64,000 nucleotides of DNA from Anaeromusa acidaminophila DSM 3853 (GTDB taxonomy: Bacteria; Bacillota; Negativicutes; Anaeromusales; Anaeromusaceae), in contig NZ_KB894594.1 of assembly GCF_000374545.1 (NCBI RefSeq), positions 1 to 64,000 on the forward strand, written 5' to 3'. A program made the translations under genes and the position numbers. The notes beneath the pieces are model-generated. The model did not search any database, was not told where the DNA came from, and was given only the letters and a program-made list of their open reading frames with translations. Shown here one piece after another: positions 27,091 to 63,400 of this stretch (positions are counted from its first letter, which is position 1; each line of letters begins with the position of its first letter).

Positions 27091-27134
27091 AAAAATGGTT
27101 GTTACTCCAATGGAGCAACAACCATTTTTTAAAA
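27091..27134. terminator. Terminator after tadC
   Basis: AAAATGGTTGTTACTCCA / TGGAGCAACAACCATTTT stem with T runs, at the end of the Tad assembly operon. Confidence 0.85.
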
Positions 27135-28028
27135 AGATTGTGCCGTTTTCAAATAACCTACGAGCATCGGGCCTAAGAGAAGAATTACAATGGCCGGAAA
27201 GATCAATAGCATCATGGGCATATTGAGCTTGAGTTGAGCTGCGGACGCGCCTTGTCGAATCTTGTCTTGTTGGCGCTGGCGCATGGTGTCGGATAGAAGA
27301 GTTAATGTTTCAGCTACCGGGTGCGCGCCCATTTCATTTTCCATTGTAAATGTTCGGTATACTTCATTGATATCTTCTGTAGGTAAACGTTTACTTAACA
27401 ACAACAAGGAGTCCTGGAGCGTCATGCCCGATTCTACGCGCTGCACAAATAGTTGAAATTCTTTGGTTAGAACATTATTTGCGTTTTCAGAAGCAATAGA
27501 AGCCATCTCTAAAATCGATAAATTTATACTTGCCAAGACAGCCATCAGGTCCAATGTTGCTGGCAGGGCAATGGAGGCATCCAGTAAGCGATTCTTGATT
27601 TGTTTTGTAATTGCGTAACTTGGCAGATGACTTCCTGCAATAGCTCCTAATATAATTAGAAGCGGCCATTTTGTCCATTCAACATCATAAATAATGGCTA
27701 AGAACAAAATAAAGGCTCCTCCTAGATACATCCCTACCATTTCAAGGGTGATAATATGAGAAGGCTTCCAATTAAATGGTTCCCCAGCAGCATACAACAT
27801 AGATTGAATGTCTTCATAGCGTTCTGGTGGAACCGGCGGACTAGACAGATTAGCTAGTCGTTTTACAATCGACTCGCGGAGCTGAGCGTAATTTCGAATC
27901 TTTTCTTTGCCGTTTTCAAGCTCAACGGTTCCGCGTATTTTCATTCGCTCTTCAAGATCTTTTTCGTCTTGAATTAGGTAAAGAATAATACATATAAAAG
28001 TGAGTAAACACAAAACAAATACAGCCAT
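27129..28028 (-). CDS. tadC: Tad pilus inner-membrane protein TadC
   Basis: The 299-aa protein has a T2SSF domain (about 155-280: LPATLDLMAVLASINLSILEMASIAS, ESGMTLQDSLLLLSKRLP, LTLLSDTMRQRQQDKIRQGASA) and hydrophobic helices at the N-terminus, near 110-150, and at the C-terminus (MMLLIFPAIVILLLGPMLVGY). With TadB it forms the membrane platform that TadA drives. It follows tadB by 13 bp. Confidence 0.9.
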   Translation of the reverse strand: MAVFVLCLLTFICIILYLIQDEKDLEERMKIRGTVELENGKEKIRNYAQLRESIVKRLANLSSPPVPPERYEDIQSMLYAAGEPFNWKPSHIITLEMVGMYLGGAFILFLAIIYDVEWTKWPLLIILGAIAGSHLPSYAITKQIKNRLLDASIALPATLDLMAVLASINLSILEMASIASENANNVLTKEFQLFVQRVESGMTLQDSLLLLSKRLPTEDINEVYRTFTMENEMGAHPVAETLTLLSDTMRQRQQDKIRQGASAAQLKLNMPMMLLIFPAIVILLLGPMLVGYLKTAQSF

Positions 28029-28041
28029 ATGCCCTCCTCCC

Positions 28042-28983
28042 TTACAGTCCAGACCGAATCATTTTTTTGATGGATAGAATCTGTTTAGCCCATATAAATC
28101 CAACAATATTGAGAATTGCCGCAACGAAAAGCATACTAAGACCTAATGCGTCCGTCAGCATTTGAGAAACTAGTTCATATTTAAAAACCAGGCAAAATAG
28201 AAAAATGCCCATAGGTGAAAACCCCACAATTTTTATTGATGCACGACCAGTGGCTGTTATCGTTCGTATGGCAGACCGATCCCCATCTCTTTTCCGAATG
28301 ATACTGATGGTGCTCGTTATTGCCTTTAATGCAACTTCGGAACTGATTCTATCGGCAACTAGCAGGCCATTAAAGAGCAAATCACCGTCCTGGGTATTGA
28401 TATTATTTTTTAAAAACCTCAATACACTTTGTAAATCCTGCCCTTTTTTTACCATGAAGGCTGCCGCTCTAAATTTTCGTCCAATCGGATCAGGAACGGT
28501 TCCCGCTTCTTCTAAAGCGCGCAATATACTTGGAGAACTTCGAAGTATGGATTGCATCTTTACTGCTGCCTGTTCAAGCTGCACTTCAATTCTTGCTTCA
28601 AGCTTTCCTTCTGCTCGTTTTACTTTAAAAATGGTTAATAGAACACCCGCAATGAAAAAAGGAAAGCTGACTAGAAAATTGCCTGTTGCTAGGGTGACTA
28701 ATGTTACGATAATACATCCTCTAATTACACTATGTTGTTTTAACCCTTTTATGCTTGTTTGAATTCCTGCGTCGTAAGCTCGTTCTGCTAAACGGCCGTA
28801 AAATTTATCGATAAAACTATTATTTTGAGTTTGGCTAGCTTCTTGCAAGTCCTCATTTCTCAGGCGAAACCGTTGCTTAAATCGTTCTTCTTCTTCCATT
28901 TGCCAGTAATATATTCCGCCGATACATAGCAATCCCACTATGAACCAGAGCATATAAATTGTGGATGGTTGAATGTAGGTCAT
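28042..28983 (-). CDS. tadB: Tad pilus inner-membrane protein TadB
   Basis: The 313-aa protein has membrane helices near residues 8-26, 85-118, 255-275 and 278-300, and a T2SSF domain between. LEARIEVQLEQAAVKMQSILRSSPSILRALEEAG matches TadB-type proteins. It lies directly after tadA and before tadC, the standard order. Confidence 0.88.
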   Translation of the reverse strand: MTYIQPSTIYMLWFIVGLLCIGGIYYWQMEEEERFKQRFRLRNEDLQEASQTQNNSFIDKFYGRLAERAYDAGIQTSIKGLKQHSVIRGCIIVTLVTLATGNFLVSFPFFIAGVLLTIFKVKRAEGKLEARIEVQLEQAAVKMQSILRSSPSILRALEEAGTVPDPIGRKFRAAAFMVKKGQDLQSVLRFLKNNINTQDGDLLFNGLLVADRISSEVALKAITSTISIIRKRDGDRSAIRTITATGRASIKIVGFSPMGIFLFCLVFKYELVSQMLTDALGLSMLFVAAILNIVGFIWAKQILSIKKMIRSGL

Positions 28984-28992
28984 AAATACATC

Positions 28993-30444
28993 TCACCTTT
29001 CCAAAAATTCGTTAGCCCGTGGGTGGACCGGTTGGCTTTTATACCAATCTGGAGTCAATGTTAATCTATCCGCAAATGTTGGAATATAACCAGTAAAGCC
29101 TAAAGTGTCACTTTCTCCCTTTTTTAAAGGGTATTTCATTTTGAAAATTGGTTGAACTTCATAGTTCCCTTTATCATCTAACCCCACCATTTCTGCAATT
29201 TCAACGATCCTGCGTTTTCCACCATTTCGGTCATCCCGATTGATTTGGATAATCATGTTTATAGCGGAAGAAATTTGCATTCTGAGAGATGATAACGGAA
29301 TTATTTTATCTAAGGTACACATATACTCAATACGAGTAAGTGCATCCGCCGGCGTATTCGCATGAAGTGTTGTAAGCGATCCATCATGCCCTGTATTCAT
29401 GGCCTGCAGCATTTCTAAGGCCTCAGACGAACGACACTCCCCGACTATAATTCGGTCGGGACGTGCACGCAAAGCACTCCAAATGAGAGCTGCCATGTCG
29501 ATATTTACGATGTCTCCTTTACTGGCGCGTATTTTTCTTGTTGCCCAGTACAATGTATGGTCTACAGCAAGATCCAGCTCCCTCGTATCTTCACAAACAA
29601 TAATACGGTCTGTCTCAATAAAATTGCTGATCATATTCAAGATTGTTGTTTTGCCGCTACCGGTACCGCCGGATATTACAATATTTAGCCGTCCGTCAAC
29701 ACAGGCCCTTAAGAAAGTTAATGCAGCGTCAGTAATAGACTCATTCTGCACAAAATCTTCAGGACGCATTTTAAATTTTGGGTGTTTCCGTATGGTTAAT
29801 TCCGTTCCGTTAGTAGCAACTGGCCATATCGTAACGTGTAGGCGATGCCCTTCTGGCAAGTACCCATCACATACGGGGTTAGCAACGTCAACTTTTTGTC
29901 CTAATGGTTGAATGATTCTGTCTACTATGTTTTTAAGGTGAGCCTCACTATCAAACCGAACCCCTTTAACCTTTCTTACCTCTCCATATTTTTCTACCCA
30001 GACATTATTGGGACCTACGCACATGATTTCTTTAACATCATCATCATGTAAAAGAGGTTCTAAGGGGCCGTAACCACAAATCTCATTGATGATTTCTGTC
30101 ATCAGCCGGTCTTCGATTTCTTTTCCTGCATAAGGAATGACAATGCGAATTTCCTTTAGCAAAAACTCTTTTAATTTTTGTTCTTTTCCCGTTTCTTGGA
30201 GCATCTTCAATTCAGGAGAAGATAAGACATTTTTAAACACGGTATCTTTGAACTGAGAATATGAGCTATCATCCATCCTGCTTTTGGGGCCTGCATTCTC
30301 AGTGCGACGACTTCCAAAAGGAGAATCGCCTTGATGAATATGTTTATTCTCTTCAGAGCAGGAAGCTATCGGCTTTTCTGGAGGTATCTCTTGAATGATT
30401 TCCAATTTTCTTGGTTGATTTCTTTGCCCAAATAATCCTCTCAT
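28993..30444 (-). CDS. tadA: Tad pilus assembly ATPase TadA/CpaF
   Basis: TadA is the hexameric secretion ATPase of Flp pili. The 483-aa product has Walker A ISGGTGSGKTTIL, an Asp box (IIVCEDTRELD), Walker B (RPDRIIVGECRSSEAL) and a His box (GHDGSLTTLHANTPADALTR). The first 65 residues are variable. Its ATG is preceded by AAGGAGG only at a distance; a perfect hairpin (30454-30481) lies between, which would bring site and start to about 11 nt. Confidence 0.93.
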   Translation of the reverse strand: MRGLFGQRNQPRKLEIIQEIPPEKPIASCSEENKHIHQGDSPFGSRRTENAGPKSRMDDSSYSQFKDTVFKNVLSSPELKMLQETGKEQKLKEFLLKEIRIVIPYAGKEIEDRLMTEIINEICGYGPLEPLLHDDDVKEIMCVGPNNVWVEKYGEVRKVKGVRFDSEAHLKNIVDRIIQPLGQKVDVANPVCDGYLPEGHRLHVTIWPVATNGTELTIRKHPKFKMRPEDFVQNESITDAALTFLRACVDGRLNIVISGGTGSGKTTILNMISNFIETDRIIVCEDTRELDLAVDHTLYWATRKIRASKGDIVNIDMAALIWSALRARPDRIIVGECRSSEALEMLQAMNTGHDGSLTTLHANTPADALTRIEYMCTLDKIIPLSSLRMQISSAINMIIQINRDDRNGGKRRIVEIAEMVGLDDKGNYEVQPIFKMKYPLKKGESDTLGFTGYIPTFADRLTLTPDWYKSQPVHPRANEFLER

Positions 30445-30453
30445 TTTTAATAA

Positions 30454-30481
30454 GGATGCAGTTAATTTCTTAACTGCATCC
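30454..30481 (-). promoter_or_regulatory. Hairpin between Shine-Dalgarno and tadA start
   Basis: GGATGCAGTTAA / TTAACTGCATCC is a perfect 12-bp stem with a 4-nt loop. It separates AAGGAGG (30484-30490) from the ATG at 30444. Folded out, the spacing is 11 nt. It follows tadZ with only a short T tract after it, so weak termination is also possible. Confidence 0.65.
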
Positions 30482-30503
30482 AGCCTCCTTAATCATTTTT
30501 CAT

Positions 30504-32486
30504 TTACCGTCTTCTAATTTTTGGTCCTTTGGAAGATCTTTTAAGAGTTGGCTTAGCAGCTGCTGGTTCTTTCTTTTTCTTTCGCGAGAACAATCTCGTA
30601 AAGAGTGAGAATAACCCTTTTTTCGGGGGCGCCTCTTCTTCGACAATCTCTTCTTCACCCTCTTCATCATAACTTTCTCCGCGAACTACCAACGCTTGAT
30701 CCTTACTGCTCTTCCTTTTCTTTTCAATAGTACCCAATGTCGTTGCTAGACGTATCACGTCCTGTGCCAAGGGTTCGTTTTCAAATGATGCAACGGCCGG
30801 CAGTCCTTGTTCTTGGCTTTTATCAGCTGATTTTCTGTCAAAAACAATTTCGCCCGCAAAAAAGTTATCCACTCCTGACGGTGATACAGTTCCCAAGATG
30901 TCTTTAATTTTATCAACATTTAACTCGCCATTATACTTTGCTTTATTGATTACCAACCTCGATTTTTTTAGATACTGCTGTGTTTCTGAATTTGGATCCT
31001 GGGAAAAACCAGCAAGTTTTGTTAATAAACTCCGGGTATTTCTGACGGATTCATAGGTAGAATCCGTTACGAATACAATCGTTTTCGCTTCGCCAAAGGC
31101 TGTCAGAATAGGGGGTAATAAATCCACGGACGTATCAATGAAGATGTAATCGAAAGACCGCCGAAGCTCATGCATAATGGCTTCTATGTGCTCTTCCTTA
31201 ATTTCTTCACTTTCGCCAATCATTTGCGGCCCCGTCAAAACCCATAAATTATCAAACCCATCGGGCTGCCATAGTGAATTGCTTATAGCGCCTGGCTGAA
31301 ATGATTTTTCTTCTTTTTGAAATGCGTCCATACGGATAAGGTCAGGTATCGTTCTAATTGGACCTTGATTCGTGAAATGGGTATCCACTGCACAATAATT
31401 AAGGTCCATGTCAATTATGGCGACCTTGGGTTGCCCTTTCCCTTTTTTTGATGTTCCATACAACGCTGCAGCCGTAGCAAAATTTACAGTTAGTGTTGTT
31501 TTGCCTGAGCCACCTTTTACAGAGGTGAAAACGATTTCTCTTGCCTTCTCATTAATGCTATCTGACGCTCTATTCATCATATCGTTAATTTGAAGAAAGG
31601 AATTGCTCGTTTCCATAGATGGTTGTGGTAATGGTGTAGCGGGATTGGTACTAATAAATTGTGGTTCTTCTTCTTTTGGTGCAACGGGTGCTAATACCGC
31701 CGGGGACAATGTTGGTGGGGCGGCGACGACAGGCGGAACCGGAATTCCTGCAGGTGCAAAAGGCGTATCGCAAGTTGTTGCCATCTGGGTCTGGGAAATT
31801 TTCATTTGAATTACATCCAGAATAACGTTGTATAAATCATTTTTTGAGTAGGGTTCTTGGCCTTGGCCTGTACGGGTTATAATGTGCGGTATTCCTTGGG
31901 CCTGAATTTGTGTTTTGAGCATTGGGTCAGGTCTAATTCCAATAGCAAACTGTGTTTGCGGATTCCGCATCATTACATGACGTGCCACTTGAATCCCATT
32001 ATGAATTGGTATGTTCATATCAATAATTACAAGATCAGGTTGATAGGACTCAATGAGTTCGATTGCAACTTTTCCTGTAATAGCCCAGCCAATATACTCC
32101 AAATTCCAGTCTTCAATGGTTTGAAACTGCTTTAAAAATTCATTGCATTGCGGGGATTGGTCTGCAACTAGAATTCGAAGGGTCGGCGTTTGCAATTGCG
32201 CTTCAACAACCGGAGATGGGATTAGCGGTTCGATAGGACTGGGGGTAAGCCGCATTTGATTTTCTTCCGGGACGTATTGTGAAGTAGTTAACCCAGGTAT
32301 GTTCTCGTTTCGATTAGCAAGAACGCTTTCTCTAGTCGGCGGCGTGAAGGAAGACGCAATCACTGCCTCTTCTTGATGATTAGCTGGTTCTTCTTTCCAT
32401 GGCAAACTATCTGATGAACCAAACCGAATTCTTTTCGTTTTGAGTTCTATTGGGGGGGCGTCACCACGAAATGTGTTTTTTGACAT
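30504..32486 (-). CDS. tadZ: TadZ/CpaE-like protein: receiver plus ParA/MinD-type ATPase
   Basis: The start is 32486 (MSKNTFRG) after GAAAGGAG. The 660-aa protein has a disordered N-terminus, a receiver-like domain (LRILVADQSPQCNEFLKQF...DLVIIDMNIPIHNG), a Pro/Ala linker, and a deviant Walker A ATPase (FTSVKGGSGKTTLTVNFA, AIIDMDLNYCAVD). It ends in a very charged Glu then Lys/Arg-rich tail. TadZ positions the pilus machine at one cell site. It is longer than most relatives. Confidence 0.88.
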   Translation of the reverse strand: MSKNTFRGDAPPIELKTKRIRFGSSDSLPWKEEPANHQEEAVIASSFTPPTRESVLANRNENIPGLTTSQYVPEENQMRLTPSPIEPLIPSPVVEAQLQTPTLRILVADQSPQCNEFLKQFQTIEDWNLEYIGWAITGKVAIELIESYQPDLVIIDMNIPIHNGIQVARHVMMRNPQTQFAIGIRPDPMLKTQIQAQGIPHIITRTGQGQEPYSKNDLYNVILDVIQMKISQTQMATTCDTPFAPAGIPVPPVVAAPPTLSPAVLAPVAPKEEEPQFISTNPATPLPQPSMETSNSFLQINDMMNRASDSINEKAREIVFTSVKGGSGKTTLTVNFATAAALYGTSKKGKGQPKVAIIDMDLNYCAVDTHFTNQGPIRTIPDLIRMDAFQKEEKSFQPGAISNSLWQPDGFDNLWVLTGPQMIGESEEIKEEHIEAIMHELRRSFDYIFIDTSVDLLPPILTAFGEAKTIVFVTDSTYESVRNTRSLLTKLAGFSQDPNSETQQYLKKSRLVINKAKYNGELNVDKIKDILGTVSPSGVDNFFAGEIVFDRKSADKSQEQGLPAVASFENEPLAQDVIRLATTLGTIEKKRKSSKDQALVVRGESYDEEGEEEIVEEEAPPKKGLFSLFTRLFSRKKKKEPAAAKPTLKRSSKGPKIRRR

Positions 32487-32502
32487 TATTGCTATACTCC
32501 TT

Positions 32503-33213
32503 TCATCGTCCTGGTTGTGATTGAACAATAAAACCAAAGCGACTTAAAAATGTTTGCGGCAAGACGTTTGCTTCCTGCACTTTTCTTGATCCTGCCTGTG
32601 CTTTGTTGATGCGGATACTTGCGCCTTGCTCTACCGCAAAGCTGATATAGCCAGCTTCTTGTGGAACTACCAGTACGGTCAGACTTTGTTTCCCGTTCGA
32701 ACCGCTGCTTACGTCAACAACTTCGACCAACGGCGCTACATTGATCGTTGTAGCGATTCCAAGCCCGCCTTCTTTTTTGAAGTTCACAATAATATCAACT
32801 ATATCTCCTTTTTTAACGTTGCCTACCTGTACATTTCCTTGGTCTAACGCTATCGGAAATTCACGGGTATTATCGTTTTTCGTTACAAGCTGTTTACCGT
32901 CTTCGTCTTCGACTCCTACCGCTTGTCCCAAAACCTCTTGGCCTTTATATATAGTTGCTACGCTTGTTAACCCAACAACTTTACTGATTTTCTCTGAGGT
33001 CAAGCCATTGGGGTGTTTGGCCATTTCTGGAATTGATTTTGTTTCAAACATATCCGCGGTTAAAACGGTTCTTGCATCAATCTTTTGTTTGGCAACAACT
33101 ACCTCTGTTAAAGTTAATGCTTTGGTATATCCTTCATACATTACAAAAGCAGCACCTAAAGCGCATAGGCAGGCACCAATAAAGAAATATTTCTTATTTA
33201 CCTGGATCTTCAT
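32503..33213 (-). CDS. cpaB: Flp pilus assembly protein CpaB/RcpC
   Basis: The 236-aa product has one N-terminal membrane helix (YFFIGACLCALGAAFVMYEGY) and a SAF domain (LTEVVVAKQKIDARTVLTADMFETKSIPEM...GLTSVATIYKGQEVLGQAV) followed by a second beta-rich domain (KKGDIVDIIVNF...VVEV...SLTVLVVPQEAGYISFAVEQG). It overlaps the HTH gene by 4 bp and precedes tadZ, with which it may interact. Confidence 0.88.
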   Translation of the reverse strand: MKIQVNKKYFFIGACLCALGAAFVMYEGYTKALTLTEVVVAKQKIDARTVLTADMFETKSIPEMAKHPNGLTSEKISKVVGLTSVATIYKGQEVLGQAVGVEDEDGKQLVTKNDNTREFPIALDQGNVQVGNVKKGDIVDIIVNFKKEGGLGIATTINVAPLVEVVDVSSGSNGKQSLTVLVVPQEAGYISFAVEQGASIRINKAQAGSRKVQEANVLPQTFLSRFGFIVQSQPGR

Positions 33214-34048: not shown

Positions 34049-37000
34049 TTACTGAGCTTTTTGAAATTGGTCTTCCCAATATTTCAGCCTTTGTTTTTCC
34101 ACCTCCAAATCAATTTCATCTTTAGGAAGATCATCTGCATAAAATATAGTGCGGTCCGTTTCCTCTGTTTTCTTTAAATCCCCGTCCCGAATGAGCCTAT
34201 TTATAAACCGCCGAGGCAAAGGCAATTTTAAAGTTTCGATGATTTCCTCATCATGAGGAGGGAGCACTGTCACAGGAGCACTTCGCACCAAGATGGGCTC
34301 GCTATGGAAATGTGAAAACTGATTATTGATTTTTATTACGCACATGCCAATAGGTTGTTTAGTAAGCCAGGTTGGTACGTCCCTATCATCTAGCCTGGCA
34401 TTCCTTGATAATGCGGTGGTAATCATTTGCACATCTTCTTGTGTACCCAGTCGATGTGCAATAATTACACCGACATTCGTTAAAACCGCATCTGGAAGAT
34501 GTTGCGGCGCCTGACCTATAACCATGGCAAATAATCCATATTCACGCGCTTCATTCAGCAGTATTTGGTATATATCTTCGTTTACACCTAACGGCGGGTC
34601 CTGATTGGGGCTGCATGGAAAGACTTCATGTGCTTCTTCCAGAATAAAGAGTCGCTCTTCCACAAGCTTTTCAAAGGACTTCATATCCTTCGAATAAAGA
34701 AATACACCCCAAGTAATGAGCCCCAAGATAAACTTTTTAGGCATATCATCGAGCATCCCGCCTTCAAGAACAATAATTCGTTTACCGTTGATAAGGTCTT
34801 CTATTTTTACAATCTGGTCTCGGTCCCGAGAGCAATACATTTCTCGCAAGTTGCGAGTCATAAACGCATTCGTTTTCGTTAGAATGGAATCGTAAGCGTC
34901 AACCATATTTCTTCCAGCAGGGTTTGATACGGCTGCCTGTCGTAGTGCATTGATTCGTTCTAACACATCCGCTAAGGTCACATTGTAGACCAATTCATAG
35001 GCATTTTCTGACTCTACGGCGATGGTTCCGGCACCAGTTCTTGGATTCTTTTCCAGCACTCCTTGTTTTAAAAATAGCTCCTCCGCGACTTTATCAAATA
35101 CGCCTTTTTGCTTATTACCAAAACCATATGCAAGGCAAAGACTTTCATGAACTTTATTCATCCAGTCCATGACCGATATTCCCATAGGAGGAACATATAC
35201 CTGCATTCGTATAGGGCGTACTCCTTCTGCGTAAAGCGAGAAAAAGTCAAAGTCCTCGTCAGGCACAAACCGCTTCAATATTCTCCAAGACTTTTTCCAA
35301 TCCAACGCAAGGATTTTCTTTTTTGGGCAATTCTTTGCAATGCCTTCTGCGATCCGTTGGCTTGTTGTTGTTTTACCGCAACCAGAAGCACCACACACTA
35401 ATATGTGCATTAGCTCTTTTTCTTTAAAGGAGTATTCAAATTCAGGTTCTCCTGTTTCATGACTGATTTGCTTTCCTACATAAATTTCCCCTTGTTTATC
35501 CGCACGAAGGGTAAATGCTGGAATGTTTTGGGCCGTTGTAAATATACCCCCGGCTTCAACCCTTGGTGGATGCGTCAATCCCGCCAATTCAGTGGGCAAC
35601 AAGACGGTACTATGCTCATAAGCTTCCGCAATCCCCGGTATAACTTCCTTTTTTGTACAAGTAGTAAATGTGCTCATGTGTCGAAGTAAATGCTCACTCA
35701 TATATGGCGGCGGCGTGTATACCTGTACAGGGCTGACAAGAGAACCGTCACCTCCAAATGCAGCTTCTGCTAAAGCGCCGATTGCTTTTTTCAGTTGAGG
35801 ATCATGACTTGAAATAAACACTTCTACATAGAAAGCTCCATCAGCAATCGCTTTGGTAAATCGCAGATTTTGTTCTTCAAATACTTTTGCCATATTAGCT
35901 TTAACTTCATCGTATTTTGTGTAGGTTTTGCTCATACCAACCGATGGTCCTAAGCCCATATTGGCGCCGGTTCCTGCACTTAACCCATTAGCAACACCTT
36001 CAGAGCGACCTAGTGAATGCCCAGTTCCTTCGGATCGGCCCTGTGTAGTTCCTGCTGCCTGTGATTGTGTCTGCGAAATATTTTGAGTTGTGCCGGCGCT
36101 TTTAGATAGCGAATCGTTTACACCTAATGATTGAGTTTGCCCTCTACCTACAGAAGCCGTTTGCCCTGAATTGGTCGATAACCCATCTGTATGCGTGGTA
36201 CCTTGTGCTTTTGACCACCCATCAGAAACGGATTGTCCATGGCTTTGGGACTGGCTATTGGCTACTGAATGAGAGTTTGCTACAGAATAACTGGTACCCT
36301 GCGAGCTACCCTGTGATGTTCCATTTGATAAAGCCCTGGATGTACCTACAGAATGGCTGCTTCCTGCTGATTCTCCATTTGAAACGGAATGTGAATTTGA
36401 TAGACTATTTGACTGAGATTGACTAGTAGAAGTTCCGGTAGTATCACCTTGTCCCCAGCCTCTACTTACACCCTCACCAACATTAGCGCCGCGCCCAGAA
36501 GATACTCCATCACTCCAATTGGCGCTAGATCCCATTGTGCTTGAATTAGAAAATGAATCCATTTCTGATGTTCCGCTGCCATTGGATAAAGAACCGTTTC
36601 CTCCAACACCCACAAAGGGCAACGAAGCATTCATACCTATAGAGCCAGCTTCATTTGTTGACATGCCGCTTGCATGGCCACTTGAACTAGAACTAGATGC
36701 TGAATTTCCGCCACCCACCATGGAACTGGTACCCGAATTAACACTCATGCCACGATTTTGGCTTTCGCCATAGTTATAGCTGTTGGAATGGCCTGCCGAA
36801 GTTCCAGTTCCTACTGAATTTGTTTGACCAACAGTAGTCCCGTCCGTTGTGGTTCTACTTACTCCATGATTGGTTCCATAAGACTCATTGGTACCATTAG
36901 TCAATGTTTGGCTTGTACCTTGATTTGTTCCATAATTTTGTCCATGCGAAACCGTTTGACCGTTTGTTACTGTTTGTCCCACTGTATTAGTAAGGGACTC

Positions 37001-38134
37001 CCCTTTAGAATGTGAAATGCTGTCAGTATGACTGGTGCCATCAGAAGAACTATGCCCAATGCCCTCAGAAACACCGAAGGACTGCTGATTAGAATCAGCT
37101 ATCCCCTGTGAGATGCCTCGACTTACTCCGTTAGTATCCGATATCCCATTTCCAATACTAACTCCTTGGGTATTCGTATTAGAAACCCCTTCTGAGTAGG
37201 ATAGGTTGGAACTATCTGTATCGGTAACACCGTTGTTATGTGTCAAAGAAGCGGACAGATTCCCAGCAAACACCATTGGCATTGACATTCCAATATTGGT
37301 TGATATGTTTTCCGCAGCACGACTTTTATAATACCCAAATTTTGTTGCTACAACTTTTGAGTAAGCAATTATTTCCCTATGTTGAATCGGGGTAGCGTTA
37401 ACCAGCATAGCAAAATGATGCTTCATCATTCCGCGAAATAGTTCTTCATTTTGTTCTTGCGAGTCGGGTGTTGGGTCTCCGCCTTTCATTCCGGCCTTTC
37501 CTAATCCCTGAGCGCTGGTTGAGTGAACCCTAGGAATACCTCGCAGCACTTGCAAGTTAGAGGCGTTTTCCATAGTATTTTTTATAATGGTTGCTTCTTC
37601 AAGAGTTAACAATTGAGTTGTTGATTGCCGATAATTCGAGCGGAGCAAGGATACGATGGCAATATAGTCTTCTTCGACTTGTTCTAACGCTACTTCTATG
37701 GTCGAGCGTAAAGCTAATTCCGTATCGTCCATATCTGGAACTGGAAGTATTCTTCTGGCTCCATAGCAGTAGATTAACCCCATTGGGCGGGGCTTTAGAA
37801 TATTGGCGCATACCATGAGGAAGAAAATATCTTGCCGCCAGATAGCGGTCATTAAATCTCCATGAATTTTCATCAAACTTTGCTTTTCGCGAAGTTCCTT
37901 AGGGATACTCACGAGGCGAAGTAATTTGACTACTTCTATACATTCCGTCCATACATCCGGTTCATCGTCCGACGAAATTAAAAGATGATAAATCATGGCT
38001 TTCGCATTGCCATCATCGTCAGACAAAATGTAACTGTTTAGGACTCTGAGATCATCATGCTCTAAATCCGGATGAAGTGAATGCAAAACATAGTCTTCTT
38101 CCATGTTCCCACGGTTTGTTCTATCTTCCGACAT
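34049..38134 (-). CDS. Giant HerA/VirB4-like ATPase with a Ser/Gly/Asn/Thr-rich repeat region
   Basis: The start is 38134 (MSEDRTN) after AAAGGGGTGG, giving 1,361 residues. Residues 1-285 form a helical, unassigned domain. Residues about 285-735 are an extreme low-complexity region built from short units such as GVSxGxSQG, SHSxGxSxT and GTSxGxSNS. From about 860 comes a DUF87/HerA-type ATPase: Walker A (CGASGCGKTTTSQ, near 920) and Walker B (RLFILEEAHEVFP, near 1165). Such ATPases pump DNA in conjugation or drive repair. A membrane-protein gene lies just upstream, so a membrane-linked DNA pump is plausible. Confidence 0.8.
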   Translation of the reverse strand: MSEDRTNRGNMEEDYVLHSLHPDLEHDDLRVLNSYILSDDDGNAKAMIYHLLISSDDEPDVWTECIEVVKLLRLVSIPKELREKQSLMKIHGDLMTAIWRQDIFFLMVCANILKPRPMGLIYCYGARRILPVPDMDDTELALRSTIEVALEQVEEDYIAIVSLLRSNYRQSTTQLLTLEEATIIKNTMENASNLQVLRGIPRVHSTSAQGLGKAGMKGGDPTPDSQEQNEELFRGMMKHHFAMLVNATPIQHREIIAYSKVVATKFGYYKSRAAENISTNIGMSMPMVFAGNLSASLTHNNGVTDTDSSNLSYSEGVSNTNTQGVSIGNGISDTNGVSRGISQGIADSNQQSFGVSEGIGHSSSDGTSHTDSISHSKGESLTNTVGQTVTNGQTVSHGQNYGTNQGTSQTLTNGTNESYGTNHGVSRTTTDGTTVGQTNSVGTGTSAGHSNSYNYGESQNRGMSVNSGTSSMVGGGNSASSSSSSGHASGMSTNEAGSIGMNASLPFVGVGGNGSLSNGSGTSEMDSFSNSSTMGSSANWSDGVSSGRGANVGEGVSRGWGQGDTTGTSTSQSQSNSLSNSHSVSNGESAGSSHSVGTSRALSNGTSQGSSQGTSYSVANSHSVANSQSQSHGQSVSDGWSKAQGTTHTDGLSTNSGQTASVGRGQTQSLGVNDSLSKSAGTTQNISQTQSQAAGTTQGRSEGTGHSLGRSEGVANGLSAGTGANMGLGPSVGMSKTYTKYDEVKANMAKVFEEQNLRFTKAIADGAFYVEVFISSHDPQLKKAIGALAEAAFGGDGSLVSPVQVYTPPPYMSEHLLRHMSTFTTCTKKEVIPGIAEAYEHSTVLLPTELAGLTHPPRVEAGGIFTTAQNIPAFTLRADKQGEIYVGKQISHETGEPEFEYSFKEKELMHILVCGASGCGKTTTSQRIAEGIAKNCPKKKILALDWKKSWRILKRFVPDEDFDFFSLYAEGVRPIRMQVYVPPMGISVMDWMNKVHESLCLAYGFGNKQKGVFDKVAEELFLKQGVLEKNPRTGAGTIAVESENAYELVYNVTLADVLERINALRQAAVSNPAGRNMVDAYDSILTKTNAFMTRNLREMYCSRDRDQIVKIEDLINGKRIIVLEGGMLDDMPKKFILGLITWGVFLYSKDMKSFEKLVEERLFILEEAHEVFPCSPNQDPPLGVNEDIYQILLNEAREYGLFAMVIGQAPQHLPDAVLTNVGVIIAHRLGTQEDVQMITTALSRNARLDDRDVPTWLTKQPIGMCVIKINNQFSHFHSEPILVRSAPVTVLPPHDEEIIETLKLPLPRRFINRLIRDGDLKKTEETDRTIFYADDLPKDEIDLEVEKQRLKYWEDQFQKAQ
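35925..37310 (-). repeat. Low-complexity coding repeat
   Basis: About 1.4 kb encodes the Ser/Gly/Asn/Thr-rich part of the giant ATPase. At DNA level the units are irregular and short, with many synonymous changes, so it is an old protein repeat rather than a recent tandem array. Confidence 0.8.
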
Positions 38135-38148
38135 GTTTACCACCCCTT

Positions 38149-58856: not shown

Positions 58857-59849
58857 TTAAGAAGCAAAAAGATCCATACACCCTTCCTCTTTTTCCTGCT
58901 GCTTGATCCAAGGGAGATACTCATCAAACGAACAGGTCTTGTAAAAATGACCGTTTACCCATCTAGCAAAGTGATTCAGCCATGGATCGGACTTGCAGTT
59001 GTTGTATTTCATCACATAGGGTTTTACATCCATCTCGGCTAATTTTCGAATCCGGGCCATATCTTCTTCGCGTGTCGTGTTAAACCCAACCAAACAGAAG
59101 CACATTTGCCGATAGGGCTTAATATATTTGGACAGCCGTTTAATACCCGCCAGGACCGGCGCTTCGTATTCCATTAGGTCCCAAGCATAATGAATGGAGC
59201 GCAAATGCTTTACTTCCGACAGGGCTTTAGCCTGCTCTTCTTTTAGTATACGAATATCGATTCCCTGTGAGATATCAATGACCAGCTGCCGCTGCTTGAT
59301 TTCATTCAGTTTTTCTAAACAGTCCGGATCGGCGGTGAGATTGTTGTCATACAAGGTGACGATATTGCTCCGGGGATTGATTAAATCGGCCAGCTTATTT
59401 TCCTGCCGCAGCTGCCCTTCCTTTTTGGGCACCACGCAAAAAGCACAATTTCGGAAACAACCGCGGCTAGTGAAGCCAATGCCCATATTGACGATATCCT
59501 GGGCTTTATGCAGCGTGCTCTCTTTACTGCGAATCCCGTGGCGAATTTGCGCGGCCACCTGTTCTACGGTATAGAGGTCGTAATCGGGGCTCATGGCGTC
59601 GATTTCGGGCGGGAGGGTCTTATGAATGTCATAGCCGGTCCCGCCCACTTCAAGATCTGGATACACTCGGGCCCACTCCAACGCCTTATCACGGTTCCAA
59701 GAGAAAAGAACACTGGCATAGACCTTTTCATAGGTTCTGCCAGGAACCACAAACTCAACCATTTCCCCCGTCCGTTTATAAAAATTACTGATTTTCATCA
59801 AGGCCAAGTTTGGAAGCTTGCCATCTATTTGAATGAGTCCAATTGCCAT
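58857..59849 (-). CDS. Radical SAM protein, B12-binding type layout
   Basis: The 330-aa product has the cluster motif CFRNCAFC (CxxxCxxC) near 138-145, within SRGCFRNCAFCVVPKKEG, followed by NIVTLYDNNLT and later TIM-barrel strands. Residues 1-100 resemble the N-terminal cobalamin-binding-like domain of such enzymes (IQIDGKLPNLALMKISNFYK...VGGTGYD). The substrate is unknown. It follows a 46-aa cysteine-rich gene by 15 bp. GGTGGGG precedes the start. Confidence 0.85.
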   Translation of the reverse strand: MAIGLIQIDGKLPNLALMKISNFYKRTGEMVEFVVPGRTYEKVYASVLFSWNRDKALEWARVYPDLEVGGTGYDIHKTLPPEIDAMSPDYDLYTVEQVAAQIRHGIRSKESTLHKAQDIVNMGIGFTSRGCFRNCAFCVVPKKEGQLRQENKLADLINPRSNIVTLYDNNLTADPDCLEKLNEIKQRQLVIDISQGIDIRILKEEQAKALSEVKHLRSIHYAWDLMEYEAPVLAGIKRLSKYIKPYRQMCFCLVGFNTTREEDMARIRKLAEMDVKPYVMKYNNCKSDPWLNHFARWVNGHFYKTCSFDEYLPWIKQQEKEEGCMDLFAS

Positions 59850-59864
59850 GTTCTTTCCCCACCT

Positions 59865-60005
59865 CTATTGTTTATTTTTTACAGGCACAACGGCCTTGAT
59901 ATGGACGTCTTGCCAGCACTCCTTGTGATTGCAGGTGCAACTCCCGCCCACTCGGGCCTTAATTACACACTTACGGGCTGAATAGGGGAGTTTTTTTAAA
60001 TTCAT
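59865..60005 (-). CDS. 46-residue cysteine-rich protein
   Basis: A frame from ATG 60005 (AAGGAGG upstream) to TAG 59865 encodes a small basic protein with SCTCNHKEC and one more cysteine. It is either a zinc-binding microprotein or, given the radical SAM gene 15 bp downstream, a substrate peptide. The first is more usual for this CxC...C pattern. A twister-like RNA lies just upstream. Confidence 0.6.
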   Translation of the reverse strand: MNLKKLPYSARKCVIKARVGGSCTCNHKECWQDVHIKAVVPVKNKQ

Positions 60006-60056: not shown

Positions 60057-60130
60057 CAGCGGGCGGGGTTGTGACCGCAGCCTTTCGGCTCCCGCATTAA
60101 CCCGACTACATTGTCGGGCCACTCTGCGCA
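60057..60130 (-). ncRNA. Twister-like RNA, copy A
   Basis: Minus strand: GCA-GAGUGG, stem CCCGAC/GUCGGG, UUAA-UGC, stem AGCC-GAAA-GGCU, and stem GCGG with loop UCACAACC. The loop UCAC can pair with GUGG, as pseudoknot T1 does in twister ribozymes. It begins 3 nt after the stop of the 49-aa gene. Cleavage would be expected between U and A of UUAA. See copies B and C. Confidence 0.5.
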
Positions 60131-60132
60131 TT

Positions 60133-60282
60133 TTACCCAACTGGACCTCCTATTAGATTCACCGCCGCTTCCAATACCTCAATATCATGAAGAAAGATAG
60201 AATTGGTATCTTCGGGACCAACAAGAGCTTTACGATCTTCGATTAAGTCCAACAGCCCTGCAAGCACTTGGGCACGATCCAC
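60133..60282 (-). CDS. 49-residue hypothetical protein
   Basis: GTG start at 60282 with GAGGGAGGG upstream; the frame ends at 60133. The product is acidic and helical (VLAGLLDLIEDRKALVGPED, IEVLEAAVNLIGGP). It lies in the run of small genes on the minus strand. Function is unknown. Confidence 0.55.
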   Translation of the reverse strand: MDRAQVLAGLLDLIEDRKALVGPEDTNSIFLHDIEVLEAAVNLIGGPVG

Positions 60283-60298
60283 AATTTTTCCCTCCCTC

Positions 60299-60529
60299 TT
60301 ACCAATCCGTATTTACCAATACGCCATTTCTGAATTCCCAGCCTAAGGTTTCCAGCTTTTCCTTAAACGAAAGCTGTTGCCATCGTTCGGGACGGCTTTG
60401 GAAGCTCTCGACTCGATGCGCATACACTCCATCCTGTCGGAGACGTTCTTCCAGTTTTGCCGTGTCTTTTTCCGTGACAGTCTTAAGATATTTACCCTGT
60501 CGGTTAAACACCTTCCATTTACTCAACAA
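60299..60529 (-). CDS. Hypothetical small protein
   Basis: The 76-aa product is rich in Arg, Lys and Glu, with FNRQGKYLKTVTEKDTAKLEERL at the start and a tryptophan-rich end. No family recognised. It is the gene before the 49-residue one, with a gap of 16 bp. Confidence 0.5.
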   Translation of the reverse strand: MLSKWKVFNRQGKYLKTVTEKDTAKLEERLRQDGVYAHRVESFQSRPERWQQLSFKEKLETLGWEFRNGVLVNTDW

Positions 60530-60541
60530 GCACCACCACCT

Positions 60542-60736
60542 TTATTCAATCACTTCCACTACAAACAATTCACTTTCATATACATCACCCTCCGTAGCCA
60601 AATCGGCCCAGCTTGATGCTTCAATCGCTAGCAGCTCGTCACCGGTAATCCGTTCAACCGAGTCGTAGACCAAATCAGGATTTTTTTCGATAAAAACCAC
60701 CGGACTTGTTTTGCTCTTAACTTTGTAATAACTCAA
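60542..60736 (-). CDS. Hypothetical small acidic protein
   Basis: TTG start with GGAAGGTGCG upstream, giving 64 residues. The chain alternates strands and helices (VVFIEKNPDLVYDSVERITGDE) and is acidic. Function is unknown. Confidence 0.5.
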   Translation of the reverse strand: MSYYKVKSKTSPVVFIEKNPDLVYDSVERITGDELLAIEASSWADLATEGDVYESELFVVEVIE

Positions 60737-60758
60737 TTTCGCACCTTCCCCTTTTCGT

Positions 60759-60914
60759 CTAATGATTGCTTTTTAATCGTTTCAATTCATCCCTAAAGGA
60801 TTCTAGGTTAAGACGGTTGTTATTAAGAGTCGTTTCATATCCCCATGTATCGATGTGTTTTTTACAACCTTGATAGCTTTGCTTAAATATCCGTTCCGCT
60901 TTAGTTATACCCAC
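60759..60914 (-). CDS. Hypothetical 51-residue protein
   Basis: A GTG at 60914 follows AAAAGGAGGCG very closely, which weakens the start call. The frame to 60759 encodes a charged helical protein (RIFKQSYQGCKKHID, LESFRDELKRLK). A perfect 9-bp stem TTGCGGTAA/TTACCGCAA (60924-60948) lies just before the ribosome site. Confidence 0.45.
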   Translation of the reverse strand: MGITKAERIFKQSYQGCKKHIDTWGYETTLNNNRLNLESFRDELKRLKSNH

Positions 60915-60923
60915 CGCCTCCTT

Positions 60924-60948
60924 TTGCGGTAATACCGCCTTACCGCAA
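60924..60948 (-). promoter_or_regulatory. Stem-loop overlapping a stop codon and preceding AAAAGGAGG
   Basis: TTGCGGTAA-GGCGGTA-TTACCGCAA contains the stop codon of the upstream gene and ends next to the ribosome site of the following one. It resembles the leader family in position, not in flanking sequence. Confidence 0.5.
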
Positions 60949-61137
60949 TTCCATTAAATGCACGATTCCTTTTGAATGCTGTTCATTAAACCATTGCCAA
61001 ATAGTATTGCGATCCGTCCCTCTTTCAAACCCATTCCAATCCTCAGCCAGAATCAATTCCATTTGGTCATTTTCATCAAAAGGAATATTATCTAGCTCTT
61101 CCCACAACTGTTCAATTTGTTTATCCTTTAGGCTCAT
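60940..61137 (-). CDS. Small conserved protein of mobile elements
   Basis: The start is the ATG at 61137 (MSLKDKQ); AAAAAGGGGC lies upstream. The 65-aa product has LWEELDNIPFDENDQMELILAEDWNGFERGTDRNTIWQWFNEQHSKGIVHLM, a compact domain that I recall from many Bacillota plasmid and phage genomes. Its role is unknown. Confidence 0.65.
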   Translation of the reverse strand: MSLKDKQIEQLWEELDNIPFDENDQMELILAEDWNGFERGTDRNTIWQWFNEQHSKGIVHLMELR

Positions 61138-61351
61138 TAACATTAGCCCCTTTTTGGATCCGCGCGCGGATATTTTTAATTTTCTCTGCAAGTTCATTAA
61201 TGCAATTTGTATTAGCCTTTTGATATCTTAGCTCAGATAAGTTGATTTCTAACTGCTCCAATCTCTCTAATTCAAAACGAGAATCCCCTTTTAGTTCCAA
61301 ATTGTTTTCTATCATTTGAACGGCGATAGCAATATTGTTAAGCATTAGCAT
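61121..61351 (-). CDS. Helical small protein
   Basis: The 76-aa product is predicted to form two long helices with heptad spacing. It overlaps the next gene by 17 bp. AGGAGAAAAAG precedes the start. Function is unknown. Confidence 0.5.
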   Translation of the reverse strand: MLMLNNIAIAVQMIENNLELKGDSRFELERLEQLEINLSELRYQKANTNCINELAEKIKNIRARIQKGANVNEPKG

Positions 61352-61431
61352 TCTTTTTCTCCTAATTTTATTTACGGAAGACTTGGGATCACTCTAAGCC
61401 TGAATCCTATGACGAAGATATTTTTTAATCG

Positions 61432-61605
61432 TTATGCTTCCAACACCCTAGTAATTTGTCTGTTTAATTTTTTCAAACAGCTGCGGCATATTTCAAATTC
61501 AGAACCAGCACTGCCAAGATTTATTAAATATTCCTTTTTAATCTCTTTACCGCAGCAGTAACAATAATGTCCGCCCTCTTTATGGGTTTTAATCCTAACT
61601 TTCAA
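61432..61605 (-). CDS. 57-residue zinc-ribbon protein
   Basis: TTG start at 61605 with AAAGGGGGGA upstream; stop at 61432. The product has CYCCGK near 15-20 and CRSCLKK near 40-46, a zinc ribbon. Copy B of the twister-like RNA lies 25 nt upstream of the start. Confidence 0.6.
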   Translation of the reverse strand: MKVRIKTHKEGGHYCYCCGKEIKKEYLINLGSAGSEFEICRSCLKKLNRQITRVLEA

Positions 61606-61629
61606 AAAAATCCCCCCTTTGCTCTCAAC

Positions 61630-61694
61630 TGCTGCTGTCGGGCTTGTGACCGACTTGCCGCATTACTGGAGGCCGTTGCCCCCATCACTCTGCG
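61630..61694 (-). ncRNA. Twister-like RNA, copy B
   Basis: Minus strand: GCA-GAGUGA, stem UGGGGGC/GCCUCCA, GUAA-UGC, then stem GUCGG with loop UCACAAGC and CCGAC. The optional GAAA-capped stem of copies A and C is absent. GUGA pairs with UCAC. It lies just after the stop of the 103-aa gene. Confidence 0.52.
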
Positions 61695-61695
61695 T

Positions 61696-62007
61696 TCACT
61701 GACAACCTTTTAAAATTTTCAGCGATATTACAACACAATTTCTAACTTCACCAATGTATGCTGCGGCATTATTTGCAAGGTTTAGAAGCCGCTGAACTTT
61801 TGCCGGTAATTCATGATGGAAATAATAAATTTGATTTATAACCGTCTTGTAAAACCACCGTTGAGCAATTTCCAATGACTCATAGCTTCCAACGCACATT
61901 TCCTCTCCTGCTGGTAAATCAATATCTACTTGGTAAAACTTATGATCCCATGTGTACAACGTAACTCCCTTAAGTTGCTCAATAATGACAGGGCCATTTA
62001 TTGACAT
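61696..62007 (-). CDS. Hypothetical protein
   Basis: The 103-aa product has a beta-rich first half (VIIEQLKGVTLYTWDHKFYQVDI) and a helical second half. AAAGGAGTGGG precedes the start. No family is recognised. Confidence 0.55.
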   Translation of the reverse strand: MSINGPVIIEQLKGVTLYTWDHKFYQVDIDLPAGEEMCVGSYESLEIAQRWFYKTVINQIYYFHHELPAKVQRLLNLANNAAAYIGEVRNCVVISLKILKGCQ

Positions 62008-62037
62008 ACATTAACCCACTCCTTTCTGGAAACTGGA

Positions 62038-62370
62038 CTACCGAATAAACTGGCGCTTCGCATCGTATTCTCCTTGATCATGCAATACGGACCATCTCTC
62101 GTAGGCAGCACCGGCAACCTTGTCTCCCTCATATTCATAAAGCTCTTGCCATGGGCCATCTTTCCATTCTTCTTTTTTGCCGATACTTTCCAAGTACTCT
62201 GCCATAATCATGTCTAGTTCCACTCCATTGGCAGTTGCAATCCGGTCAATAATGCTTGTTTCTTTATTGATTTTTTCTTCGCAATCGGTGCAGCATTCTA
62301 AAATTTCATATCCTCCTACAAATCTTGTAGATTGATCTGCTTCGCGGCCGCAAAAAGTACATTTTCCCAT
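62038..62370 (-). CDS. Zinc-ribbon hypothetical protein
   Basis: The 110-aa product has CTFCGRE at the start and CCTDCEE near residue 28, then an acidic helical part (DMIMAEYLESIGKKEEW). AAAAGGAGCG precedes the start. Function is unknown. Confidence 0.6.
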   Translation of the reverse strand: MGKCTFCGREADQSTRFVGGYEILECCTDCEEKINKETSIIDRIATANGVELDMIMAEYLESIGKKEEWKDGPWQELYEYEGDKVAGAAYERWSVLHDQGEYDAKRQFIR

Positions 62371-62395
62371 TGTTATCGCTCCTTTTTTTCCTCAA

Positions 62396-62416
62396 TCATC
62401 GTGGCCCCCATCACGC
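62396..62416 (-). ncRNA. Fragment of the twister-like element
   Basis: GTGATGGGGGCCACG matches copy B (GTGATGGGGGCAACG) at all but one base, but the rest of the element is missing. It overlaps the stop codon of the gene at 62411-62668. It is a degenerate copy at best. Confidence 0.4.
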
Positions 62417-62668
62417 TACTTTAATATGTGGTATTCTATCAACTTGTACTGTCAAACTAGCAATATATGCAACGCAAGTGCTAGTGAGTTCATACGCGAA
62501 ATGACGACCAGCGGGATTATCCTCAATGAGTGCTGATTTATCCAACAAAGGCGGTTTACTGAGCGAGGAACCTGGGGCATAATACTGGATATTTACATAG
62601 ATGTTTTTGCGGTCTATCCAAGGGAAAATCCGTACTTTATATCCGTCTACCCACTTATCAACTTCCAT
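62411..62668 (-). CDS. Hypothetical protein
   Basis: The 85-aa product looks beta-rich (YKVRIFPWIDRKNIYVNIQYYAPG). AAAAAGGAGAGG precedes the start, and copy C of the twister-like RNA ends 19 nt before it. No family is recognised. Confidence 0.55.
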   Translation of the reverse strand: MEVDKWVDGYKVRIFPWIDRKNIYVNIQYYAPGSSLSKPPLLDKSALIEDNPAGRHFAYELTSTCVAYIASLTVQVDRIPHIKVA

Positions 62669-62686
62669 TTCATCCTCTCCTTTTTT

Positions 62687-62756
62687 GCACTCAGGACTTG
62701 TGACCTGTAACCTTTCGGTTAGTGCATTACCGGAGCATACGCTCCGTCACTCTGCA
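62687..62756 (-). ncRNA. Twister-like RNA, copy C
   Basis: Minus strand: GCA-GAGUGA, stem CGGAGC/GCUCCG, GUAA-UGC, stem AACC-GAAA-GGUU, stem CAGG with loop UCACAAGU and CCUG. GUGA can pair with UCAC. It begins 7 nt after the stop of the 180-aa gene and ends next to the ribosome site of the 85-aa gene. It is the most complete copy. Confidence 0.55.
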
Positions 62757-62762
62757 ATTCAG

Positions 62763-63305
62763 TTAGTTGTAATAGTGTCTTAAAGTTCCATTTACTATTT
62801 CATATTGCCAACCGTTTACATCAAAGCGAATGTAGTTATAATCCGTCGCGCAATATTGCGGAATTCGGTCGTACGTCTGATACGGTTTAGCGTAAACTCC
62901 TTCTTTAATATAGGTTTTTACCTCTCTGATAATCCTAATTTTTGATGCTTCAAACCCAAATTCGCGGTTGATCTGAATAATAGCTTCCTGCTCCGTCAAC
63001 TTCCATTCCTTGTTATTCCCGGAAAGCTTTTGATAATCGTCTTCGCTCATGTTAGTACCCATGTCTTGGATGATTTCCGGCTGAATCCAAATATTAGTTA
63101 CGTTCTCGCCATGTTCGCCAGTCAAGACCTCCAGCCTGTTACCCAGATCGCAAATGCGGGAAAGATGGTTACGTGTCGGGTGCCTGTAAATCGCATACCC
63201 TGCGTTCGTGCTTGCAACTTCATCTTTTTGGTAGTCGGTCGGAAAAATCTTATCGGCTTCAGTCCATGCCTGTTCTTTTGTAGTGACGGTTATTGTTTCG
63301 CTCAT
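62763..63305 (-). CDS. Hypothetical protein
   Basis: The 180-aa product has aromatic-rich strands at the C-terminus (YNYIRFDVNGWQYEIVNGTLRHYYN) and a helical centre. AAGGAGGGC precedes the start. It heads the minus-strand run of small genes that ends near 58 kb. No family is recognised. Confidence 0.6.
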   Translation of the reverse strand: MSETITVTTKEQAWTEADKIFPTDYQKDEVASTNAGYAIYRHPTRNHLSRICDLGNRLEVLTGEHGENVTNIWIQPEIIQDMGTNMSEDDYQKLSGNNKEWKLTEQEAIIQINREFGFEASKIRIIREVKTYIKEGVYAKPYQTYDRIPQYCATDYNYIRFDVNGWQYEIVNGTLRHYYN

Positions 63306-63400
63306 GTTTATGCCCTCCTTGTATTAAGTTTCTATCCTTATTATATAATATCGCTAACGATATTTCAAGGGCTTTAGTGCGTTTTTCGATAAACTTTTTG

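What the first reader, a model, noticed from the sequence alone, without database searches (positions are those of the whole stretch)
60057..62756. Three twister-like ribozyme candidates between genes of one operon
Copies at 60057-60130, 61630-61694 and 62687-62756 (all minus) share GCA-GAGUGR, a variable hairpin, (G/U)UAA-UGC and a hairpin with loop UCACAA. The stems covary completely, and GUGR can pair with UCAC. This order and the pseudoknot match what I know of twister self-cleaving RNAs (UAA cleavage loop, L1-L4 pairing), in a permutation where the P1 stem is closed by a loop. Each copy sits immediately after a stop codon and before the next ribosome site, so cleavage would split a polycistronic mRNA. 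A fragment at 62396 hints at past spread.
Basis: partly seen in the sequence, partly recalled or inferred. Interest (0 to 1): 0.8.

Follow-up and report, generated by a model that had tools for sequence, protein, structure and literature searches.

The report
Twister ribozymes between plasmid genes
Three short stretches between genes of a bacterial plasmid are self-cutting RNAs of a known class (type-P5 twister ribozymes), and a survey of 209 of them suggests that they sit right at the end of genes to cut multi-gene messages into separate pieces.

Summary
All three elements match Rfam RF02684 (Twister-P5) above the curated cut-off (63.6, 54.2 and 51.9 bits; cut-off 37.6). They carry every invariant core base and both pseudoknots. 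The "loop-closed P1" permutation is the known type P5. They lie on the minus strand of one predicted operon of small unknown genes, on a 113-kb Rep_3/ParA plasmid of a Negativicutes bacterium. They are absent from the three congeners held.

I collected 233 further type-P5 matches, mostly from viral contigs. In 149 of 209 analysed (71%) the stop codon of the upstream open frame ends within 8 nt of the ribozyme's first base. Comparison rates are 5.9% (random points) and 3.7% (other GCAGAG). In 58 the stop codon overlaps the ribozyme. The upstream genes are unrelated (172 clusters). Copies in arrays share a strand (80 of 81 neighbouring pairs), about one gene apart.

Best reading: intercistronic self-cleavage. 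The upstream mRNA keeps a 3'-terminal hairpin and the downstream mRNA a 5'-OH leader. New members of a known class; cleavage here is untested. The stop-codon rule is, as far as I could search, undescribed, and makes the unknown role of bacterial twisters testable.

The parts
63340..63368 (-). predicted sigma-70-type promoter (TTGAAA-17-TATAAT) ahead of the operon
   Evidence: consensus scan, 11 of 12 matches; no minus-strand terminator-like site between 63340 and 59478
62763..63305 (-). ORF 1 (180 aa), unknown function; stop codon 7 nt before GCAGAG of ribozyme A
62692..62756 (-). ribozyme A, type-P5 twister; P1 hairpin 62730-62746, cleavage predicted between U62729 and A62728, extra P3 hairpin (AACC-GAAA-GGUU), L4 UCACAA 62698-62703, T2 AC/GU
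   Evidence: Rfam RF02684 54.2 bits; coordinates
62411..62668 (-). ORF 2 (85 aa), unknown; SD-led start 23 nt after ribozyme A
62400..62414 (-). possible ribozyme remnant (14/15 identical to T1-P1 of ribozyme B) overlapping the UGA stop of ORF 2
   Evidence: only such match on the contig; 0 in 40 block shuffles; not a covariance-model hit
62038..62370 (-). ORF 3 (110 aa), possible zinc-finger-like N terminus, below cut-off
61696..62007 (-). ORF 4 (103 aa), unknown; stop codon 2 nt before GCAGAG of ribozyme B
61638..61694 (-). ribozyme B, type-P5 twister, no P3; P1 hairpin 61666-61684, cleavage predicted between U61665 and A61664, L4 UCACAA 61644-61649, T2 GC/GC
   Evidence: Rfam RF02684 63.6 bits; coordinates
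61432..61605 (-). ORF 5 (57 aa, TTG start), unknown; start 32 nt after ribozyme B
60133..60282 (-). ORF (49 aa, GTG start), unknown; stop codon 5 nt before GCAGAG of ribozyme C
60063..60128 (-). ribozyme C, type-P5 twister; P1 hairpin 60100-60118, cleavage predicted between U60099 and A60098, extra P3 hairpin (AGCC-GAAA-GGCU), L4 UCACAA 60069-60074, T2 GG/CC
   Evidence: Rfam RF02684 51.9 bits; coordinates
59865..60005 (-). ORF (46 aa), unknown; SD-led start 57 nt after ribozyme C
58857..59849 (-). ORF (330 aa), radical-SAM-like protein with distant phage relatives
   Evidence: Pfam Radical_SAM below cut-off; 15 phage records at <60% identity

Best explanation
The three elements are type-P5 twister self-cleaving ribozymes transcribed within one polycistronic mRNA of a plasmid. 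Each folds once RNA polymerase has passed and cuts between U and A of its UAA, about 31-34 nt after the upstream stop codon and 59-93 nt before the next start codon. The upstream mRNA is left with a stable hairpin (the closed P1 stem) at its very 3' end, followed by a terminal U with a 2',3'-cyclic phosphate. The downstream mRNA is left with a 5'-OH leader containing P4 (and P3) ahead of its own ribosome site. The array thus splits one transcript into short units with ribozyme-made, probably exonuclease-resistant ends, so the genes can decay independently. Shown here: family membership, both pseudoknots, operon layout, and the stop-codon placement across 209 relatives. From established knowledge of twister ribozymes: the UAA cleavage site and the end chemistry. 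Inferred: cleavage of these copies in the cell, protection of the ends, and any effect on expression.
For: Rfam hits above gathering with full-length alignments and an intact core. In 54 relatives, T1 is 100% paired with UA, GC and CG alternatives, and T2, P1 and P4 covary; 93.2% of cells are paired against 70% in shuffles and 32-42% when slid. In the window T2 is AC/GU, GC/GC and GG/CC (sequence). Operon layout: one good promoter and no minus-strand terminator between 63340 and 59478. Survey: in 149 of 209 relatives the stop codon of a >=60-codon open frame ends within 8 nt of the first G of GCAGAG, against 5.9% of random same-strand points, 9% antisense and 3.7% of other GCAGAG. 66% have an SD-led start within 60 nt downstream against 12.5% at random. 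The upstream genes form 172 unrelated clusters. 80 of 81 neighbouring copies share a strand, median spacing 538 nt. The median distance from stop to cleavage site is 29 nt, and the 45 nt ending at the cleavage site always fold well.
Against: No cleavage, transcript or decay data could be obtained. Close packing after stop codons is also expected in compact phage and plasmid genomes. The three other congeneric genomes held lack the elements, so they are not needed by the host. The promoter and terminator calls are consensus scans only.
Confidence: 0.72

Rival explanations
1. The ribozymes are active but are selfish or neutral hitch-hikers of plasmids and phages. They insert into tight intercistronic gaps because those are the only places where they do no harm, and cutting there has no useful effect.
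For: They are sparse and patchy (8 of 380 class genomes over the cut-off; absent from congeners). A possible remnant lies at another stop codon of the same operon. Upstream genes are unrelated.
Against: The two pseudoknots, and hence presumably activity, are maintained across very divergent copies. Neighbouring copies almost always share a strand, and the offset from the stop codon is tighter than harmless insertion into any gap would need (median 1 nt upstream against 25 nt downstream).
Confidence: 0.17
2. Translation-gated ribozymes: a ribosome ending translation at the abutting or overlapping stop codon physically covers P2 and T1, so cleavage is held back while the upstream gene is being translated. 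(A refinement of the best explanation, not exclusive of it.)
For: The stop codon overlaps the core in 58 of 209 relatives and lies within 8 nt in 149. The window copies have 2-7 nt between stop and core, within a ribosome's downstream reach (general knowledge).
Against: Ribosomes clear the stop codon quickly, and twister cleavage is fast, so gating may be only a brief delay. Placement could equally be packing.
Confidence: 0.2
3. The elements are not ribozymes but intercistronic hairpin repeats (terminators, REP-like or protein-binding elements).
For: They are hairpin-rich, GC-rich and lie at gene ends.
Against: They pass the Twister-P5 model. Loop bases, not just stems, are invariant, and long-range pseudoknot pairs covary. 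They are not followed by a U tract and none was called a terminator.
Confidence: 0.03

Closest known systems
Type-P5 twister ribozyme (Rfam RF02684; Roth et al. 2014, known to me from memory and through PMC5408937 and PMC10085705)
   Same: Same core, same permutation (termini in P5, P1 closed by a loop), same T1 and T2 pseudoknots, above the curated score.
   Different: No core difference. These lie on a Rep_3/ParA plasmid of a Negativicutes bacterium. The middle T1 pair is U-A (GUG/CAC) where Rfam's consensus has G-C; U-A is the commoner form in my pattern-selected sample (44 of 54).
Tandem hammerhead ribozymes flanking genes in prophages (Perreault et al. 2011, PMC3088659)
   Same: Several self-cleaving ribozymes around single genes of one transcript; [quoted passage not shown] coli for one array.
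   Different: A different ribozyme class; no stop-codon placement rule in the passages I read; the window copies are on a plasmid.
Type-P1 twister ribozymes of viral contigs
   Same: Same core; upstream stop codon within 150 nt in 43 of 57, and often a hairpin just upstream of the cleavage site.
   Different: P1 is open, so any 3'-terminal hairpin must come from a separate upstream stem (the optional P0). That was clear in only part of the sample (14 of 57 with z < -2), and stop-codon placement is looser (quartiles 18-53 nt to the cleavage site, against 25-34 for type P5).

Membership tests
Twister-P5 (RF02684) | Covariance-model score above the curated gathering score | tested here: met
   63.6, 54.2 and 51.9 bits against 37.6
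Twister-P5 (RF02684) | Conserved loop nucleotides including UAA cleavage site and L4 | tested here: met
   GCAGAG, G after the variable T1 base, UAAUGC and GGUC-N-CAA present in all three
Twister-P5 (RF02684) | Stems P1, P2 and P4 | tested here: met
   paired in all three copies; P1 and P4 covary in 54 relatives, P2 core invariant
Twister-P5 (RF02684) | Pseudoknot T1 (L1-L4) | tested here: met
   GUG/CAC in the window; 100% of cells paired with three pair types in 54 relatives
Twister-P5 (RF02684) | Pseudoknot T2 | tested here: met
   AC/GU, GC/GC and GG/CC in the three copies (sequence); covariation in relatives, 82.8% paired on a MAFFT alignment that misplaces some rows
Twister-P5 (RF02684) | Permutation with termini at P5 and P1 closed by a loop | tested here: met
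   order GCAGAG - P1 hairpin - UAAUGC - P4, full model 1-58 matched
Twister-P5 (RF02684) | Site-specific self-cleavage | not testable with these tools
   needs in vitro transcription
Rho-independent terminator | GC hairpin followed at once by a U tract | tested here: not met
   no minus-strand terminator-like site at the three elements

The most novel reading that the evidence does not exclude
Bacterial type-P5 twisters are gene-end processing signals whose 5' strand is fused to the stop codon. A terminating ribosome covers the P2/T1 strand and so gates cleavage, which couples mRNA separation (and 3'-hairpin formation on the upstream message) to the end of translation. The closed-P1 permutation would have been favoured because it leaves a hairpin on the upstream message.
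Probability: 0.2. Interest if true: 0.75.

Novelty: new member of a known kind. Interest (0 to 1): 0.47.

Why it matters
What bacterial twister ribozymes do is an open question: the biological reason for their association with phage genes 'is still unknown' (PMC10085705), and their functions 'remain largely speculative' (PMC5408937). The strict placement at or inside the stop codon of otherwise unrelated genes, with neighbouring copies on the same strand and about one gene apart, points to one role (cutting polycistronic mRNA at gene ends) and gives a simple reporter test. The three window copies, on a plasmid with a clear promoter-like site, are a compact natural array for that test.

Tried and rejected
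(1) Terminators or REP-like repeats: rejected on invariant loop bases, pseudoknot covariation and lack of U tracts. (2) A close phage relative of the operon: none in 50,697 phage records by blastn; only the radical-SAM gene has distant phage relatives, and one viral contig encodes a 62% identical relative but holds no twister match. (3) An empty site in congeners: not possible, because the first gene of the operon has no homologue in 39 other genomes. (4) A conserved post-cleavage refolding helix (UGC... with the tail after P4): possible in the window copies, but weak across the family (mean -4.8 against -4.2 kcal/mol shuffled, 61% better), so not claimed. (5) A general P0-hairpin rule for type P1: only partly supported (26 of 57 with MFE <= -8, 14 of 57 with z < -2). 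(6) Type-P1 twister in the own genome: no match, but that search rang in no control genome, so absence is not shown. (7) Many genome contigs pattern hits are likely chance; only those confirmed by the covariance model were used. (8) Reading Roth 2014 and Weinberg 2015: not held.

Full report
Observation. Rfam cmscan over the whole window returns exactly three hits at gathering threshold, all RF02684 Twister-P5: 61638-61694 (63.6 bits), 62692-62756 (54.2) and 60063-60128 (51.9), against a cut-off of 37.6. Each alignment covers model positions 1-58. The copies share GCAGAGUGR, UAAUGC and GGUCACAA. P1 and P4 differ in sequence, and copies A (62692-62756) and C (60063-60128) have an extra P3 hairpin with a GAAA loop that copy B lacks. 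The T2 pair is AC/GU in A, GC/GC in B and GG/CC in C. T1 is GUG/CAC in all three.

Surroundings. The elements are on the minus strand of a run of small ORFs without known families. The run starts behind a good promoter-like site (63368-63340), and no minus-strand terminator-like site occurs before 59478. Between the upstream stop codon and GCAGAG lie 7, 2 and 5 nt; from the predicted cleavage site to the next start codon lie 60, 59 and 93 nt. The contig is 113,029 bases, with a Rep_3 initiator and a ParA protein, a T2SSE/CpaF-type ATPase and a beta clamp. It therefore looks like a plasmid rather than a phage. Three congeners have no Twister-P5; in the class, 8 of 380 genomes have one over the cut-off.

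Family survey. A covariance model R1 built from 54 sequences (53 viral copies and window copy B) gave 242 matches in three searches, of which 236 (233 plus the window's three) were taken into the analysis. On the 54-row alignment all five helices, including both pseudoknots, are supported: 93.2% of cells paired against 70.0% in shuffles and 32-42% when slid; the middle T1 pair is UA in 44, GC in 9 and CG in 1.

Placement rule. For 209 distinct copies with at least 200 nt upstream, I looked for stop codons closing an open frame of at least 60 codons. They pile up at the ribozyme's 5' edge: 149 of 209 end within 8 nt of the first G of GCAGAG, against 5.9% of random same-strand points and 18 of 198 on the antisense side, and 23 of 627 for GCAGAG words outside twisters. 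In 29 copies the G of a UAG stop is the first G of GCAGAG; in 29 the stop is the UGA inside GCAGAGUGA, within the T1 strand. The upstream proteins fall into 172 homology clusters out of 179 cases, and 139 of the 172 representatives obey the rule. Downstream, 66% have an SD-led start within 60 nt against 12.5% at random. Where a locus holds several copies, 80 of 81 neighbouring pairs are on the same strand, with median spacing 538 nt. Caveats: the sample was chosen by an exact core pattern, frames rather than called genes were used, and a few low-scoring matches may be type-P1 elements.

Mechanism. Twister ribozymes cut between U and A of the UAA (established knowledge). In type P5 this leaves the closed P1 hairpin (about -10 to -11 kcal/mol in the window copies) at the 3' end of the upstream message, 29 nt (median) after its stop codon. 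The downstream message starts with a 5'-OH and carries P4. I infer that these ends slow decay of each half. In viral type-P1 twisters, where P1 is open, a separate hairpin often lies just before the cleavage site (45-nt MFE -10.6 against -6.3 shuffled), but a stricter test supports this in only part of them. So the idea that a 3'-terminal hairpin is the common aim is plausible, not shown. The close contact of stop codon and core also allows gating by terminating ribosomes; this is untested.

Comparison. The elements pass every sequence and structure test of the type-P5 twister family; only cleavage is untested. The operon-cutting idea is not new in kind: Perreault et al. (PMC3088659) proposed it for clustered hammerheads in prophages. 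Weinberg and colleagues report that bacterial hammerhead and twister ribozymes are enriched near Mu-like phage genes and near each other for an unknown reason (PMC10085705). I found no report of the stop-codon rule, but the two key papers (Roth 2014, Weinberg 2015) were not readable here.

Remnant. A 14/15 match to copy B lies at 62414-62400, on the stop codon of ORF 62668-62411. It is the only such match on the contig outside copy B, and none occurred in 40 block shuffles of the operon. It could be a decayed ribozyme whose UGA is now the gene's stop codon, but no covariance-model match remains.

Verdict. The three elements are new members of a known ribozyme family in an instructive setting. 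The general placement rule is the more interesting by-product.

Noticed in passing
L385:4137-11123 (contig positions 68137-75123, just beyond the window): CRISPR repeats (Rfam CRISPR-DR2) beside a RecD-like helicase, a Cas6-like protein and three unassigned ORFs on the same plasmid; this looks like a type IV-D CRISPR-Cas locus. About 430 bases of the repeat region read N.
   Followed up: partly
L385:163-1787 (contig 64163-65787): An IscB-like protein (RuvC/HNH-looking ORF, 419 aa) directly followed by a TnpA-like transposase (133 aa), judged by eye from the translations.
   Followed up: no
window 34049-38143: A HerA-like ATPase (1364 aa) with a several-hundred-residue Ser/Gly/Asn/Gln-rich low-complexity insert in the middle.
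   Followed up: no
window 27129-33213: Tad/CpaF-type gene set (CpaB-, CpaE-, CpaF- and TadB/C-like ORFs, mostly judged by eye) on a plasmid; the CpaF-type ATPase has only <60% identical relatives in the plasmid collection.
   Followed up: partly
L165 and L201 (IMGVR_UViG_3300027896_000024): One viral contig carries about ten type-P5 twisters within roughly 7 kb.
   Followed up: no
L135:4030-4087: A pistol ribozyme lies among type-P5 twisters on the same strand of a viral contig.
   Followed up: no
L402:8687-8962: Rfam 6A RNA and drum RNA side by side near the end of the plasmid contig.
   Followed up: no
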